Shown here one piece after another: positions 333-4,068 of a stretch of 36,463 nucleotides of DNA. The stretch comes from Chloroflexota bacterium (GTDB taxonomy: Bacteria; Chloroflexota; Anaerolineae; Anaerolineales; VGOW01), in contig VGOW01000040.1 of NCBI GenBank assembly GCA_016875735.1, positions 1 through 36,463 of the forward strand, given 5' to 3'. The notes beneath the pieces were generated by a model. It did not search any database. It saw nothing but the letters and a program-made list of their open reading frames with translations, and was not told the DNA's origin. Position numbers and translations under genes: made by a program. Numbering within the stretch: position 1 is the stretch's first letter; every line of letters begins with the position of its first letter.

Positions 333-1442
333 ATGCGCGCCAAAACTCCAAAGCAGACTCAAAGGCGGGTGCAGGACACCGCGCCAATGGGCGGCGACTC
401 GCCTCTTCTCATGCAGCAAGCCCTCGCCGATCCGTTGTCGGCTTCGCCCGCGGCCATCCTCTCTCTGCAACGCACACACGGAAATCAAGCAGTCCAACGG
501 CTGATCAGCCATGCCCAGCGAAAGGCGCCGGTGGGAATGGAAGGCGGCGAGTTGGATGCCGACATGCATAGCGAGATCGATCACGCCCGAGGAGGCGGAC
601 GCCCGCTCGACAGCCGGGTGGGATCCGAAATCGGTTCGGCGCTCGGAGCCGACTTTAGCGGAGTCCGTGTCCACACCGATGGACAGTCGGATGCCCTCAA
701 CCGTTCCCTTTCAGCCAAAGCCTTCACTCTCGGCAGTGATATTTTCTTCAGCGAGGGCGCGTGCGACCCGGCCACATCCGGCGGCAAAGAGTTGCTGGCG
801 CATGAGTTGACGCACGTCGTTCAACAGGGCGGCGGCCAAACCAACAAAGTTCAGACCAAACTCACGGTGGCCCCGGCGGGCGACAAATATGAGCAGGAAG
901 CAGATACGGTCGCCAAACGTGTCACGTCGTTCAAGGCCGCGCCCGCTCCGGCGAGAGAGGCGGGCCGAGAAGACTCTGTCCAACGCCACGCCGATCACGG
1001 CGCGACGGTTCGAGAAGAGGATGTGGCGCAGCGCCAAGTTGCGCCTCCCGGCCAAACACCGGTGAGCGTCAGCCAATCGGTGGGCGGGCCGGCCATCCAG
1101 CGCGAAATCCTCGCCGATTGGAAAGGCGAGTCCACTGTGAAAGGCTTCCTCAACATCAAGAAGCCGCGAAGCAAGGCGCTCAAACAAGTGGACAAAGCCG
1201 TTGAGGAATTCAACAAGACTCTGCCCGCGCTGTGGGATGATCGAATCAACAAAGGCACTTCTGTTTATTTCACCAACCCCTGCGCCACCATCAATTCCGC
1301 ATTCAACAACGATCCGCCCGCCGCCCCGCGAATGGTGTTGTGCGATAGCACCACAAACTTCACGTCGAACAGCGGGTCTTCGCGCACGCGGCCCACCACC
1401 GTCGTCATCCCCCGGCCTGCATCGCGATCTCGCCGCGGCTGA
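333..1442 (+). CDS. DUF4157 putative metallopeptidase, C-terminus probably displaced
   Basis: The N-terminal part has the LQRTHGNQAVQRLI motif (residues about 44-58) typical of DUF4157 proteins. It is followed by the DUF4157 core, PLDSRVGSEIGSALGADFSG, and the HELTH zinc-binding motif at residues 157-161. A second partial motif, YEQEADTVAKRV, follows at about 185-196. DUF4157 proteins are often linked to extracellular contractile injection systems as toxin-leader or protease domains; none of the injection apparatus is in this window. The last about 58 codons (1265-1442) are read antisense through the 3' end of asd, so the natural C-terminal domain seems lost. ATG 333 follows an in-frame stop at 303. 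There is no clear ribosome-binding site, and an ATG at 317 in another frame has a better one. Confidence 0.7.
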   Translation: MRAKTPKQTQRRVQDTAPMGGDSPLLMQQALADPLSASPAAILSLQRTHGNQAVQRLISHAQRKAPVGMEGGELDADMHSEIDHARGGGRPLDSRVGSEIGSALGADFSGVRVHTDGQSDALNRSLSAKAFTLGSDIFFSEGACDPATSGGKELLAHELTHVVQQGGGQTNKVQTKLTVAPAGDKYEQEADTVAKRVTSFKAAPAPAREAGREDSVQRHADHGATVREEDVAQRQVAPPGQTPVSVSQSVGGPAIQREILADWKGESTVKGFLNIKKPRSKALKQVDKAVEEFNKTLPALWDDRINKGTSVYFTNPCATINSAFNNDPPAAPRMVLCDSTTNFTSNSGSSRTRPTTVVIPRPASRSRRG

Positions 1443-2314
1443 GGGCGATCCGCTTCGCGCCTCACTTCGATGATCCTTTGCGGCGATGAGGGGAGAGCGC
1501 GGACGATCTCCGGCCCGGCGAATTCGCTCATCACGCGGGCGACATCCGTCGGTGAGGCTTTGGTTTCTAATTCCACCGACGCGCACACGGTGTGGCCGTC
1601 AACCACCCCCACCCGATTCGTGTGCGCCGTTGTTCTGAAGGGGGCCGGTTCGATGGTCCCGCCCACAAACTTCCCCAACATCTTCTGCGGCTCGGTTTCA
1701 ACCTTATCTTCCTCGTTGCCGATGTGCGGAATCACATTGTCCACAATGTCGAGCGAGGCCACGCCCGGATAGCCTGCGCCGGAGAGCGCCTGCATCGAAA
1801 CGGCAAAGATACGTTTGACACCAAAGTTGTCGAGCAACGGGCGGAGAGCAATGGTGAAGCCGGTGGCGGTGCAGTTGGGGTTGGTGGTGAGGAATCCGCT
1901 CCAGCCGCGATTCTTTTGTTGGGCAGTGATGAGCGCCGTGTGATCGGGATTGACTTCGGGGATGAGCAAAGGCACATCGGGCCACATGCGGTGCGCCGAG
2001 GCGTTGGAGGCGACGAAATGCCCGGCGTTGGCGAAGGCCGGTTCGAGTTCTTTGGCCTGATCGGCGGGCAGGGCCGAGAAACAAATGGCGGCGTCCATTC
2101 CCGGCTCGGTCGGAATCACTTTCATGTTTTTGGCGTAATCGGGTATCGGGCCCGCAAGAATCCAGCGGCATCCTTCGGCATACGCTTGGCCGATGGTGCG
2201 GTCGCTTCCGGTGAGCGCGGTCACTTCGAACCACGGATGATTATCGAGCAACTGCACGAAGCGTTGACCCACTGCGCCGGTGGCGGCGAGAACTGCGGCT
2301 TTGATTTTCGGCAT
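1265..2314 (-). CDS. asd: aspartate-semialdehyde dehydrogenase
   Basis: Converts aspartyl-4-phosphate to aspartate-4-semialdehyde with NADPH, the second step towards lysine, threonine, methionine and diaminopimelate. The 349-residue protein has the nucleotide-binding loop ATGAVGQ at 11-17, the catalytic cysteine in TTNPNCTATGF (Cys148) and a likely active-site histidine in VDGHTVCASVE (about 241). The ending HNTIRGAAGGSLLNAEL is typical. The sequence style resembles the archaeal/fungal subgroup of the family. I chose ATG 2314 because MPKIKAAVLAATG is the conserved beginning. No Shine-Dalgarno is evident, so expression probably depends on lysC, 75 bp upstream in the same operon. Its 3' end overlaps the convergent DUF4157 frame by 178 bp. 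Confidence 0.95.
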   Translation of the reverse strand: MPKIKAAVLAATGAVGQRFVQLLDNHPWFEVTALTGSDRTIGQAYAEGCRWILAGPIPDYAKNMKVIPTEPGMDAAICFSALPADQAKELEPAFANAGHFVASNASAHRMWPDVPLLIPEVNPDHTALITAQQKNRGWSGFLTTNPNCTATGFTIALRPLLDNFGVKRIFAVSMQALSGAGYPGVASLDIVDNVIPHIGNEEDKVETEPQKMLGKFVGGTIEPAPFRTTAHTNRVGVVDGHTVCASVELETKASPTDVARVMSEFAGPEIVRALPSSPQRIIEVRREADRPQPRRDRDAGRGMTTVVGRVREDPLFDVKFVVLSHNTIRGAAGGSLLNAELMVAQGLVK

Positions 2315-2389: not shown

Positions 2390-3799
2390 CTACGCGCGTT
2401 TGGCGATAATGAGATCGTGAATTGCCCGCACCGCCTCATCCGCTTCTTTGGCGTCCACCACGAGGCTGATCGAGCATTCCGATGATCCCTGCGCGATGGC
2501 GATGACGTTGACATTGGCGCTGCCGAGCGCGCTGAAAATTTTTCCGGCGAGGCCCGGCGTGTATTTCATGCCCGCTCCCACCACCGTGACAATCACCGCA
2601 TCGTTGATGGCTGTGACGCTGTCGATGTCGCGGCGGGCGAGTTCGAGCCGGAACTCTTCTTCGAGCGCGGCGATGACCCGGCTCACCGACGCCGACGGCG
2701 CAGAGAAGCAAATGCTCTGCTCGGACGAGGCTTGAGTGATGAGCGTGACGCTGACTCTCGACCGCGCCACTGCGCCGAATGTTCGGGCGGCCACGCCGGG
2801 CACGCCCAGCATTCCGCGCCCCTCGATGGTGATGAGGCTCTGCCCTTTGATCGCCGTGACGGCTTTGATCGCTCCGGCGGCTCGCCCGTTATCGGGAACG
2901 ATGAGTGTGCCGGGATGCGATGGGTTGAATGTGTTTTTGATCCACAACTGAATGCCGCGCTCGATCACCGGGCGAATGGTTTTGGGATGCAGAACTTTCG
3001 CGCCGTAATACGCCAATTCGGAGATTTCGCGGAACGACAGTTCGGGCAGGGTTTGCGCGTCGGCGGCCACGCGGGGGTCAGCCGTCATCACCCCGTTCAC
3101 GTCCGTCCAAATCCACACCTCATCGGCGGCCATCGCCGCGCCGATGATGCCCGCGCTGTAATCGCTCCCGCCGCGCCCCAACGTCGTCACCGCACCCGAC
3201 CGTGTCGCGCCAATGAAGCCGGTGATCACGGGGACGCCGCCGCGCCGCATCAACGGGCGCAATCGCAATTCGCATTTGGCCGCCGTCTCCTCCATCTGCG
3301 GGTTGGCCGAGCCGAACATATCATCGGTGAGGATCAGCTCGCTGGCCTCCACCGCCTCTGCTTCGATCCCGATCTCGCGCAAGCGCGCGGCTATGAGGTG
3401 AATGCTCATGCGCTCGCCGAGCGATGAGATCGCGTCGATGGCGCGGGGCGAGGCCTCGCCGAGAATGTTGACGGCGTGGCACAACGATTCGAATTCGGCA
3501 AGATATGGTTCGATGTTTTCCCGCAGGGGCGATTCGCGAATCGCCCCTACCAAATCATGTATGGCGATCTCATGTTTCGCATGCAATTCTTTGGCGATAT
3601 GTCTGAATGTCTCTGCGTCGCCGGCCGCCGCCGTGTGCGCGCCTTTAAGCAACGCATCGGTCACACCGCTCATGGCCGAAACGATGACCGCCACTTGCGG
3701 CCAATCTTTCTTCGCGGCGCGAACGATCTCCGCGCTTTTGGCCATGGCCTCCGCGCCGCCCACCGACGTGCCGCCGAATTTCATAACGAGAGTTTTCAT
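2390..3799 (-). CDS. lysC: aspartate kinase with C-terminal ACT domains
   Basis: Phosphorylates aspartate, the committed step of the aspartate family of amino acids. The 469-residue protein opens with MKTLVMKFGGTSVGG (the amino-acid kinase KFGGTS motif) and carries TTLGRGGSDYSA near residue 200 for substrate and nucleotide binding. Two ACT-type regulatory regions follow in the last about 150 residues (SLITIEGRGMLGVPGVAART and ITVVGAGMKYTPG-like segments), so allosteric control by lysine or threonine is expected. ATG 3799 is preceded by AGGA. The gene lies downstream of a leader with a Thr-rich peptide and a terminator, and is followed by asd. A 24-bp perfect palindrome is embedded in the coding sequence at 3525-3548. 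Confidence 0.95.
   Translation of the reverse strand: MKTLVMKFGGTSVGGAEAMAKSAEIVRAAKKDWPQVAVIVSAMSGVTDALLKGAHTAAAGDAETFRHIAKELHAKHEIAIHDLVGAIRESPLRENIEPYLAEFESLCHAVNILGEASPRAIDAISSLGERMSIHLIAARLREIGIEAEAVEASELILTDDMFGSANPQMEETAAKCELRLRPLMRRGGVPVITGFIGATRSGAVTTLGRGGSDYSAGIIGAAMAADEVWIWTDVNGVMTADPRVAADAQTLPELSFREISELAYYGAKVLHPKTIRPVIERGIQLWIKNTFNPSHPGTLIVPDNGRAAGAIKAVTAIKGQSLITIEGRGMLGVPGVAARTFGAVARSRVSVTLITQASSEQSICFSAPSASVSRVIAALEEEFRLELARRDIDSVTAINDAVIVTVVGAGMKYTPGLAGKIFSALGSANVNVIAIAQGSSECSISLVVDAKEADEAVRAIHDLIIAKRA
3525..3548. repeat. palindromic repeat inside lysC
   Basis: AGGGGCGATTCG is followed directly by its exact reverse complement. With a few outer bases the pairing extends to about 15 bp per arm. 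It is read in frame and encodes roughly VGAIRESPL. A related element lies in the gap at 7857-7877, which shares GGGCGA...TCGCCCCTAC. That points to a dispersed repeat family that has entered a coding sequence. Confidence 0.75.
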
Positions 3800-3810
3800 A
3801 GGATTCCTAT

Positions 3811-3888
3811 TTTCACCACAAAGGCGCGAAGAACGCAAAGGATTTTGAGCAAAAGCCTTGGCGCTCTCTGCGTTCTTTTCGGTTCAAC
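3811..3888. repeat. imperfect palindromic repeat element before lysC
   Basis: The left arm contains CGAAGAACGCAAAGG and the right arm CCTTGGCGCTCTCTGCGTTC. The core pairing is AAGAACGCA (3829-3837) with TGCGTTCTT (3869-3877). Elements of the form CACAAAGGCACGAAGAACGC are familiar as dispersed repeats in many environmental genomes (from memory). It lies between the attenuator terminator and the lysC ribosome-binding site, so it is part of the read-through mRNA. Confidence 0.6.
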
Positions 3889-3893
3889 AAAAC

Positions 3894-3924
3894 AAAAAAC
3901 GCGAAGCCGTCCGGCTCCGCGTTT
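3894..3924 (-). terminator. intrinsic terminator of the lysC leader (attenuator)
   Basis: On the minus strand AAACGCGGAGCC pairs with GGCTTCGCGTTT (12 bp, one G-T pair, loop GGAC), followed by a run of six T and then GTTTTG. It lies 95 bp upstream of the lysC start and downstream of a short leader peptide, and the nearest upstream gene ends almost 200 bp away. That placement fits an attenuator better than a simple end-of-gene terminator. Confidence 0.8.
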
Positions 3925-3949
3925 GGTGTGTCGTGAGTCTCGCTCGTCT

Positions 3950-4003
3950 TCACCCAACCGGAAGCGACGGCTGTCGCGGTCGCGCAGTCGCAGTGGTGGT
4001 CAT
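3950..4003 (-). CDS. putative threonine-rich leader peptide of the lysC-asd operon
   Basis: A 17-codon frame encodes MTTTATARPRQPSLPVG, with four Thr codons among codons 2-6. It ends 26 bases before the terminator stem. Thr codons would act as control codons if ribosome stalling regulates aspartate kinase, because threonine is an end product of the pathway. TCCGGTT at the end of the frame (3962-3956) can pair with AGCCGGA of the terminator's 5' arm (3916-3910) as an antiterminator. The Thr codons ACCACC could pair imperfectly with GGTTGGGT in the alternative fold. A weak point is that there is no strong Shine-Dalgarno before the ATG. Another frame over the same bases reads His/Cys-rich (HCRHDHHCDC), but its ATG would lie at or upstream of the predicted transcription start. 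Confidence 0.55.
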   Translation of the reverse strand: MTTTATARPRQPSLPVG

Positions 4004-4040
4004 GCCGGCAGTGAATCGAATTGACTTCATCGAGCGGCAT

Positions 4041-4068
4041 GGTATCACGCAAAGCGCGCGATGGTCAA
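4041..4068 (-). promoter_or_regulatory. candidate promoter for the lysC leader
   Basis: TTGACC at 4068-4063 is followed after 16 bp by GATACC at 4046-4041 (or ATACCA with 17 bp). The -35 is good and the -10 weak. Transcription would begin near 4034, about 30 bases before the leader peptide ATG. A second TTGACG lies just upstream. Confidence 0.4.

What the first reader, a model, noticed from the sequence alone, without database searches (positions are those of the whole stretch)
3894..4068. Threonine-type ribosome-mediated attenuator in front of lysC-asd
Seen: a 17-codon frame MTTTATARPRQPSLPVG with Thr at codons 2, 3, 4 and 6; a 12-bp hairpin with a T-tract 26 bases later; and TCCGGTT (3962-3956) able to pair with AGCCGGA (3916-3910) of the terminator. 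AGCCGTC (3972-3966) could also pair with GACGGCT (3911-3905). Known: thr operon attenuation in enterobacteria uses a Thr/Ile leader (thrL). Inferred: threonine starvation stalls the ribosome on ACC/ACT, frees the antiterminator and lets aspartate kinase and asd be made. I know of no described case for lysC in this phylum, and the leader lacks a good ribosome-binding site.
Basis: partly seen in the sequence, partly recalled or inferred. Interest (0 to 1): 0.82.

Follow-up and report, generated by a model that had tools for sequence, protein, structure and literature searches.

The report
Threonine attenuator before lysC in Chloroflexota
A short threonine-rich reading frame and a transcription terminator sit in front of this bacterium's only aspartate kinase gene, and the same arrangement recurs in dozens of relatives, so these poorly studied bacteria very probably switch the gene on when threonine runs short, by the ribosome-stalling trick known from E. 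coli.

Summary
The finding is real and its interpretation holds, with corrections. The leader frame has 26 codons, not 17: it starts at ATG 4030, in frame, 8 nt after a -10 box (TACCAT 4044-4039; -35 TTGACC 4068-4063), so the transcript is probably leaderless. That explains the missing ribosome-binding site. A terminator (3924-3897) follows the stop by 25 nt. In the window alone the evidence is modest: about 1% of short ORFs have as dense a Thr run. Comparison settles it. 47 lysC leaders (40 non-redundant) from this genome and its relatives, mostly of one order, a few from elsewhere in the phylum, keep Thr codons (24% of residues, z=17.5), a stop usually 18-37 nt before a terminator, and an antiterminator. 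Terminators fall into 10 sequence types; each leader segment matches its own terminator (0 of 200,000 permutations as good). Upstream genes change while the leader stays with lysC. Met is also enriched beside Thr, so co-sensing of Met is possible. The same model found Phe/Tyr-rich leaders before aroH; two ilvB genes have Ile/Leu/Val-rich leaders. No Rfam family matches, and I found no published Chloroflexota case in the open-access library. There are no transcript or reporter data.

The parts
4039..4068 (-). promoter-like site: -35 TTGACC (4068-4063), 18-nt spacer, -10 TACCAT (4044-4039)
   Evidence: same spacing to the leader ATG in relatives
3950..4030 (-). leader peptide frame, 26 codons, MKSIRFTAGMTTTATARPRQPSLPVG, stop TGA 3952-3950
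   Evidence: sequence; frame, start position and Thr codons kept in relatives
3986..4000 (-). Thr control codons ACC ACC ACT GCG ACT (codons 11-15); a further Thr codon is at 4012-4010
   Evidence: Thr enrichment across 40 non-redundant leaders
3951..3972 (-). region 2, antiterminator strand in the 3' part of the leader frame up to the stop (AGCCGTCGCTTCCGGTTGGGTG)
3905..3930 (-). region 3 and start of the terminator's 3' arm, partner of region 2 (CACACCAAACGCGGAGCCGGACGGCT)
3897..3924 (-). intrinsic terminator hairpin, 12 bp, loop GGAC, -19.2 kcal/mol
3887..3896 (-). T-rich tract of the terminator (TTTGTTTTGT)
2390..3799 (-). lysC, aspartate kinase (regulated gene)
1265..2314 (-). asd, aspartate-semialdehyde dehydrogenase (probable second gene of the operon)
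   Evidence: co-transcription inferred

Best explanation
A ribosome-mediated (leader-peptide) transcription attenuator controls lysC, and probably asd, in response to charged tRNA-Thr. RNA polymerase starts within a few nt of ATG 4030 and a ribosome translates the leader. When Thr-tRNA is charged, the ribosome reaches the stop (3952-3950) and covers region 2 (3972-3951); the terminator 3924-3897 forms and transcription ends before lysC. When Thr is scarce, the ribosome stalls on ACC ACC ACT GCG ACT (4000-3986). Region 2 is then free to pair with region 3 and the start of the terminator's 3' arm, the terminator cannot form, and lysC-asd are transcribed. Shown here: the sequence elements, their conservation and the matching of leader segment to terminator. 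Inferred: transcription start, translation, stalling, termination and direction of regulation.
For: Thr-rich ORF followed by a terminator upstream of lysC in 21 of 30 same-order genomes and in 47 collected leaders, 40 non-redundant; Thr 24.1% of residues against 11.0% in dinucleotide shuffles (z=17.5), Ile not enriched. Stop codon mostly 18-37 nt before the terminator. In 28 of 47 leaders the ATG lies 7-11 nt after the -10 box. Region 2 pairs with its own terminator better than with those of the other 9 types: 0 of 200,000 permutations as good, 5 of 200,000 with the 5' arm only. Core helix paired in 92.9% of cells in window-type leaders. Folding with the ribosome at the stop gives the terminator; with the ribosome on Thr codons it gives antiterminators. 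Upstream genes differ between relatives while the leader stays with lysC. One lysC match in the genome, itself.
Against: No transcript, translation or reporter data. The window's own statistics are weak. 9 of 30 same-order lysC regions and many other families lack the leader. In one large terminator type, region 2 ends some nt upstream of the stop codon, so how the ribosome masks it there is less clear. Covariation inside the window-type group is too small to judge.
Confidence: 0.88

Rival explanations
1. The hairpin is simply the terminator of the upstream gene (ybaK-like deacylase, 4744-4118, same strand) and the Thr-rich frame is a chance ORF.
For: The upstream gene is on the same strand and ends about 190 nt before the hairpin. 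In the window alone, the Thr run is at the 1% level.
Against: In relatives the upstream gene differs but leader and terminator remain in front of lysC. A promoter-like site lies between. Thr enrichment and terminator matching across leaders.
Confidence: 0.03
2. The element is a bivalent attenuator that senses both threonine and methionine: Met codons interspersed among the Thr codons also stall the ribosome when Met-tRNA is short.
For: Internal Met is 7.1% of leader residues against 1.9% in shuffles (z=14.2); 64 of 88 internal Met are next to Thr, against 182 of 845 other residues. Drift from Thr codons would give Ile (from ACC, ACT, ACA) more often than Met (from ACG), yet Ile is not enriched. 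Both amino acids are end products of the pathway.
Against: The window leader has a single internal Met (codon 10). Pure-Thr leaders exist (L011, L022, L192). ATG codons could be internal starts. A stall at Met codons is inferred only.
Confidence: 0.3
3. The leader is a riboswitch or T-box that reads threonine, lysine or uncharged tRNA directly, and the short frame is incidental.
For: Riboswitches and T-boxes also use terminators with alternative pairing; a lysine riboswitch precedes lysC in Shewanella (PMC2659441).
Against: No Rfam match at the curated score, nor anything relevant at E up to 10. Conservation lies in codons of one frame and in the terminator; no conserved aptamer core is visible in the alignment.
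Confidence: 0.03

Closest known systems
thrL, attenuator of the thrABC operon in enterobacteria (Rfam RF00506 Thr_leader)
   Same: Leader peptide rich in Thr codons, terminator and antiterminator, in front of an aspartate kinase gene (thrA carries the kinase domain).
   Different: No Rfam match. thrL combines Thr with Ile codons (own knowledge); here Ile is not enriched but Met is. Different gene (monofunctional lysC with asd, not thrABC), phylum, and probably a leaderless start.
Leaderless leader peptides of Streptomyces (leuL, trpL, ilvL, thrL before thrS; PMC8079986)
   Same: Leader peptide translated from the very 5' end of the transcript, codon-biased, several before terminators.
   Different: Other genes and phylum; the Streptomyces thrL precedes thrS, has two Thr and no clear terminator.
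ilvB-II uORF attenuator of Corynebacterium (PMC10272879)
   Same: Conserved codon-biased uORF followed by terminator and antiterminator.
   Different: Senses branched-chain amino acids, other operon, other phylum.
Lysine riboswitch in front of lysC (RF00168)
   Same: Controls an aspartate kinase gene by alternative RNA folding.
   Different: No match here; signal is a leader codon run for Thr, not a lysine aptamer.

Membership tests
ribosome-mediated transcription attenuator (leader-peptide type) | short ORF with a run of codons for an end product of the regulated pathway | tested here: met
   Thr 24.1% of residues in 40 non-redundant leaders, z=17.5; other frames 2-4%
ribosome-mediated transcription attenuator (leader-peptide type) | intrinsic terminator between leader ORF and first gene | tested here: met
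   3924-3897 plus T-tract; present in relatives
ribosome-mediated transcription attenuator (leader-peptide type) | antiterminator, exclusive with the terminator, formed by a segment between control codons and stop | tested here: met
   permutation 0 of 200,000
ribosome-mediated transcription attenuator (leader-peptide type) | leader ORF is transcribed and translated | tested here: inconclusive
   promoter-like site and fixed start position, frame-keeping length changes in the genus; no expression data
ribosome-mediated transcription attenuator (leader-peptide type) | termination responds to tRNA charging | not testable with these tools
   needs a reporter or in vitro transcription-translation
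Rfam RF00506 Thr_leader | match to the family's covariance model | tested here: not met
   no match at the curated score nor at E up to 10
leaderless leader peptide | transcription start at or next to the leader start codon | tested here: inconclusive
   -10 box 8 nt before the ATG; 7-11 nt in 28 of 47 leaders; start site not mapped
lysine riboswitch or T-box | Rfam match or conserved aptamer/T-box sequence | tested here: not met
   no GGGTGGNACC motif in the region

The most novel reading that the evidence does not exclude
Chloroflexota possess an undescribed set of leader-peptide attenuators, mostly with leaderless leaders: a bivalent Thr+Met one on lysC-asd, a Phe/Tyr one on aroH and DAHP synthase, and an Ile/Leu/Val one on some ilvB genes. 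Ribosome stalling would then be a main control of amino-acid synthesis in this phylum, with two end products of the aspartate pathway sensed at once.
Probability: 0.35. Interest if true: 0.75.

Novelty: new member of a known kind. Interest (0 to 1): 0.62.

Why it matters
It would be a well-supported leader-peptide attenuator for an aspartate kinase gene in a largely uncultured phylum, where I found none described in the open-access library. It puts the first common step of the Lys/Met/Thr/Ile pathway under threonine control at transcription, probably from a leaderless mRNA, which implies close coupling of transcription and translation in these bacteria. Leader codons also offer a way to read, from metagenomes alone, which amino acid controls which operon.

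Tried and rejected
Terminator of the upstream gene: rejected, since the element follows lysC and not the neighbour. Riboswitch or other known RNA: no Rfam match. The 17-codon frame as the full leader: replaced by 26 codons, because the ATG at 4030 keeps a fixed distance to the -10 box in relatives. Thr leaders on other Thr genes: the genome's hom has none and none was detected before 30 thrC genes. Window-only statistics: weak. Covariation inside the window-type group: little variation, inconclusive. Two structure strings of wrong length failed and were corrected. Literature searches found no Chloroflexota case; two comparative papers known to me by title (Vitreschak 2004, Lopatovskaya 2010) are not in the library and could not be checked.

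Full report
OBSERVATION. The hairpin 3924-3897 with its T-tract is the strongest terminator-like site in the first 9 kb. The genes downstream are an aspartate kinase (lysC, 3799-2390) and an aspartate-semialdehyde dehydrogenase (asd). A search of the genome with the lysC protein finds one match, itself.

THE LEADER IS LONGER. An in-frame ATG at 4030 gives MKSIRFTAGMTTTATARPRQPSLPVG. It lies 8 nt after TACCAT (4044-4039), which has TTGACC 18 nt upstream. In 28 of 47 leaders the ATG lies 7-11 nt after the -10 box. If transcription starts 6-8 nt after the -10 box, as is usual (own knowledge), the transcript begins at or within a few nt of the ATG. This inference explains why no ribosome-binding site is seen. 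In some other lineages (L011, L013, L022, L061) a Shine-Dalgarno-like motif precedes the ATG instead, which supports that the frame is translated. Within the genus and L005 the leaders differ in length by whole codons only, although the -10 to ATG distance and the nucleotides around the stop are fixed.

CHANCE, WINDOW ALONE. Two of 227 short ATG ORFs in the window have four or more Thr within six codons. The full antiterminator duplex has p=0.048 against shuffles; with the 5' arm alone p=0.35. On its own the window would not carry the claim.

COMPARISON. lysC upstream regions were taken from 30 same-order genomes, 80 loci of named genomes and a phylum-wide sample. The sets overlap; identical leaders were dropped. 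21 of the 30 same-order regions contain a Thr-rich ORF followed by a terminator. Examples: MSISPFTTTNTMTTTARTRQPSLPVG (L002), MYPNAGTTTTTMQTAPTGWEAAACAW (L006), MKFPQTICPSLPGTTTTTTTSRT (L011), MSELNLGRSSFGTTTTTTTET (L022). In all, 47 leaders were collected, 40 of them non-redundant. Thr makes up 24.1% of residues, against 11.0% in dinucleotide shuffles and 2-4% in the other frames; Ile is not enriched. Named carriers include Anaerolineales and Thermoflexales metagenome-assembled genomes. Outside the order, clear cases occur in family f58 (L192, L194) and weaker ones in f86, f23 and f24; families f35, f40, f45, f54, f63 and f67 showed none. The genes upstream of the leader differ among relatives, so the element belongs to lysC.

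ALTERNATIVE STRUCTURES. In the window, 3972-3951 can pair with 3930-3905 (AGCCGTCGCTTCCGGTTGGGTG with CACACCAAACGCGGAGCCGGACGGCT), -29.4 kcal/mol against -19.2 for the terminator. In 14 window-type leaders the core helix (GCTTCG with CGGAGC) pairs in 92.9% of cells. The GCTTC core is kept although it falls in different reading frames of the peptides (SLPV in this genome, ASS or ASH elsewhere), which points to selection on the RNA. Among 10 terminator sequence types (for example CGCGGAGCC, GCCTCACGG, GTCGCGCC, ACGCCCC, GCCCTGCG) the leader segment matches its own terminator: 0 of 200,000 permutations reach the observed sum, 5 of 200,000 with the 5' arm only. Within one type there is little variation, so covariation tests there are inconclusive.

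MECHANISM. With the ribosome at the stop only the terminator is left to fold; with the ribosome on the Thr codons region 2 is free, and in most leaders tested the predicted fold up to the terminator loop is an antiterminator (L006 folds otherwise). This is the classical design (E. coli trp and thr attenuators, own knowledge). In type B leaders region 2 ends upstream of the stop codon, so masking there may need a further 1:2 hairpin or timing. All dynamic steps are inferred from sequence.

KNOWN OR NEW. No Rfam family, Thr_leader included, matches. Leaderless leader peptides are known from Streptomyces (PMC8079986) and codon-biased uORF attenuators from Corynebacterium (PMC10272879). Searches for Chloroflexota cases found none; the library lacks most subscription papers. 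I class it as a new member of a known kind: it works like thrL but is not a member of the Thr_leader family as Rfam defines it. Whether it shares ancestry with thrL was not tested.

BEYOND THE FINDING. A covariance model built from window-type leaders also found, in this genome (contig C51:24578-24714) and in relatives, Phe/Tyr-rich leaders (such as MKPTRRFAFYFYFSDSPPAAVPA) in front of AroH-type chorismate mutase; in this genome two genes resembling DAHP synthase follow. Two ilvB genes have Ile/Leu/Val-rich leaders before a terminator. Several trpE genes carry T-box-like motifs instead (GGGTGGCACC...CGTCCC). Met is enriched next to Thr in the lysC leaders, which leaves open that methionine is sensed too.

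LIMITS. No experiment. Most relatives are metagenome-assembled. The leaders are related, so combined p-values overstate independence. At each locus the ORF with most Thr among those ending near a terminator was chosen, which inflates the Thr figure somewhat; the matching of leader segment to terminator type does not rest on the Thr count directly.

Noticed in passing
L227 (own genome, contig C51:24578-24714, minus) and L228-L249, L255, L259: A second attenuator family: Phe/Tyr-rich leader peptides, many with a -10-like box just before the ATG, with a similar terminator, in front of AroH-type chorismate mutase; DAHP-synthase-like genes follow in this genome, and in L245, L248 and L252 DAHP-synthase-like genes come first.
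   Followed up: partly
L276 and L282, upstream of ilvB: Ile/Leu/Val-rich short frames (MLINLLVLVPVILLLVIEKPLLFGTAAVRSTRR; MSISIIVVLVVLIELLIVKGPFVFGTAEKQASK) end 27 and 22 nt before a terminator; probable branched-chain attenuators.
   Followed up: no
lysC leaders of relatives (40 non-redundant): Internal Met is enriched nearly four-fold and sits next to Thr; possible co-sensing of methionine.
   Followed up: partly
window 3880-3810 (minus), and the same spot in L004, L005, L018: Between terminator and lysC lies a repeat-like inverted sequence (CTTTGCG.. type); relatives have unrelated inverted repeats at the same spot, as if small dispersed repeats insert there.
   Followed up: no
L293-L299, upstream of trpE: T-box-like motif (GGGTGGCACCACGG...CGTCCC), with an additional hairpin upstream in most; Rfam gave no match at its gathering score in the four loci scanned, L293, L294, L295 and L297.
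   Followed up: no
L173, L175, L176 (family f35), 34 nt upstream of lysC: A conserved long hairpin with a T-run precedes lysC without any Thr-rich frame; another kind of control or a plain terminator.
   Followed up: no
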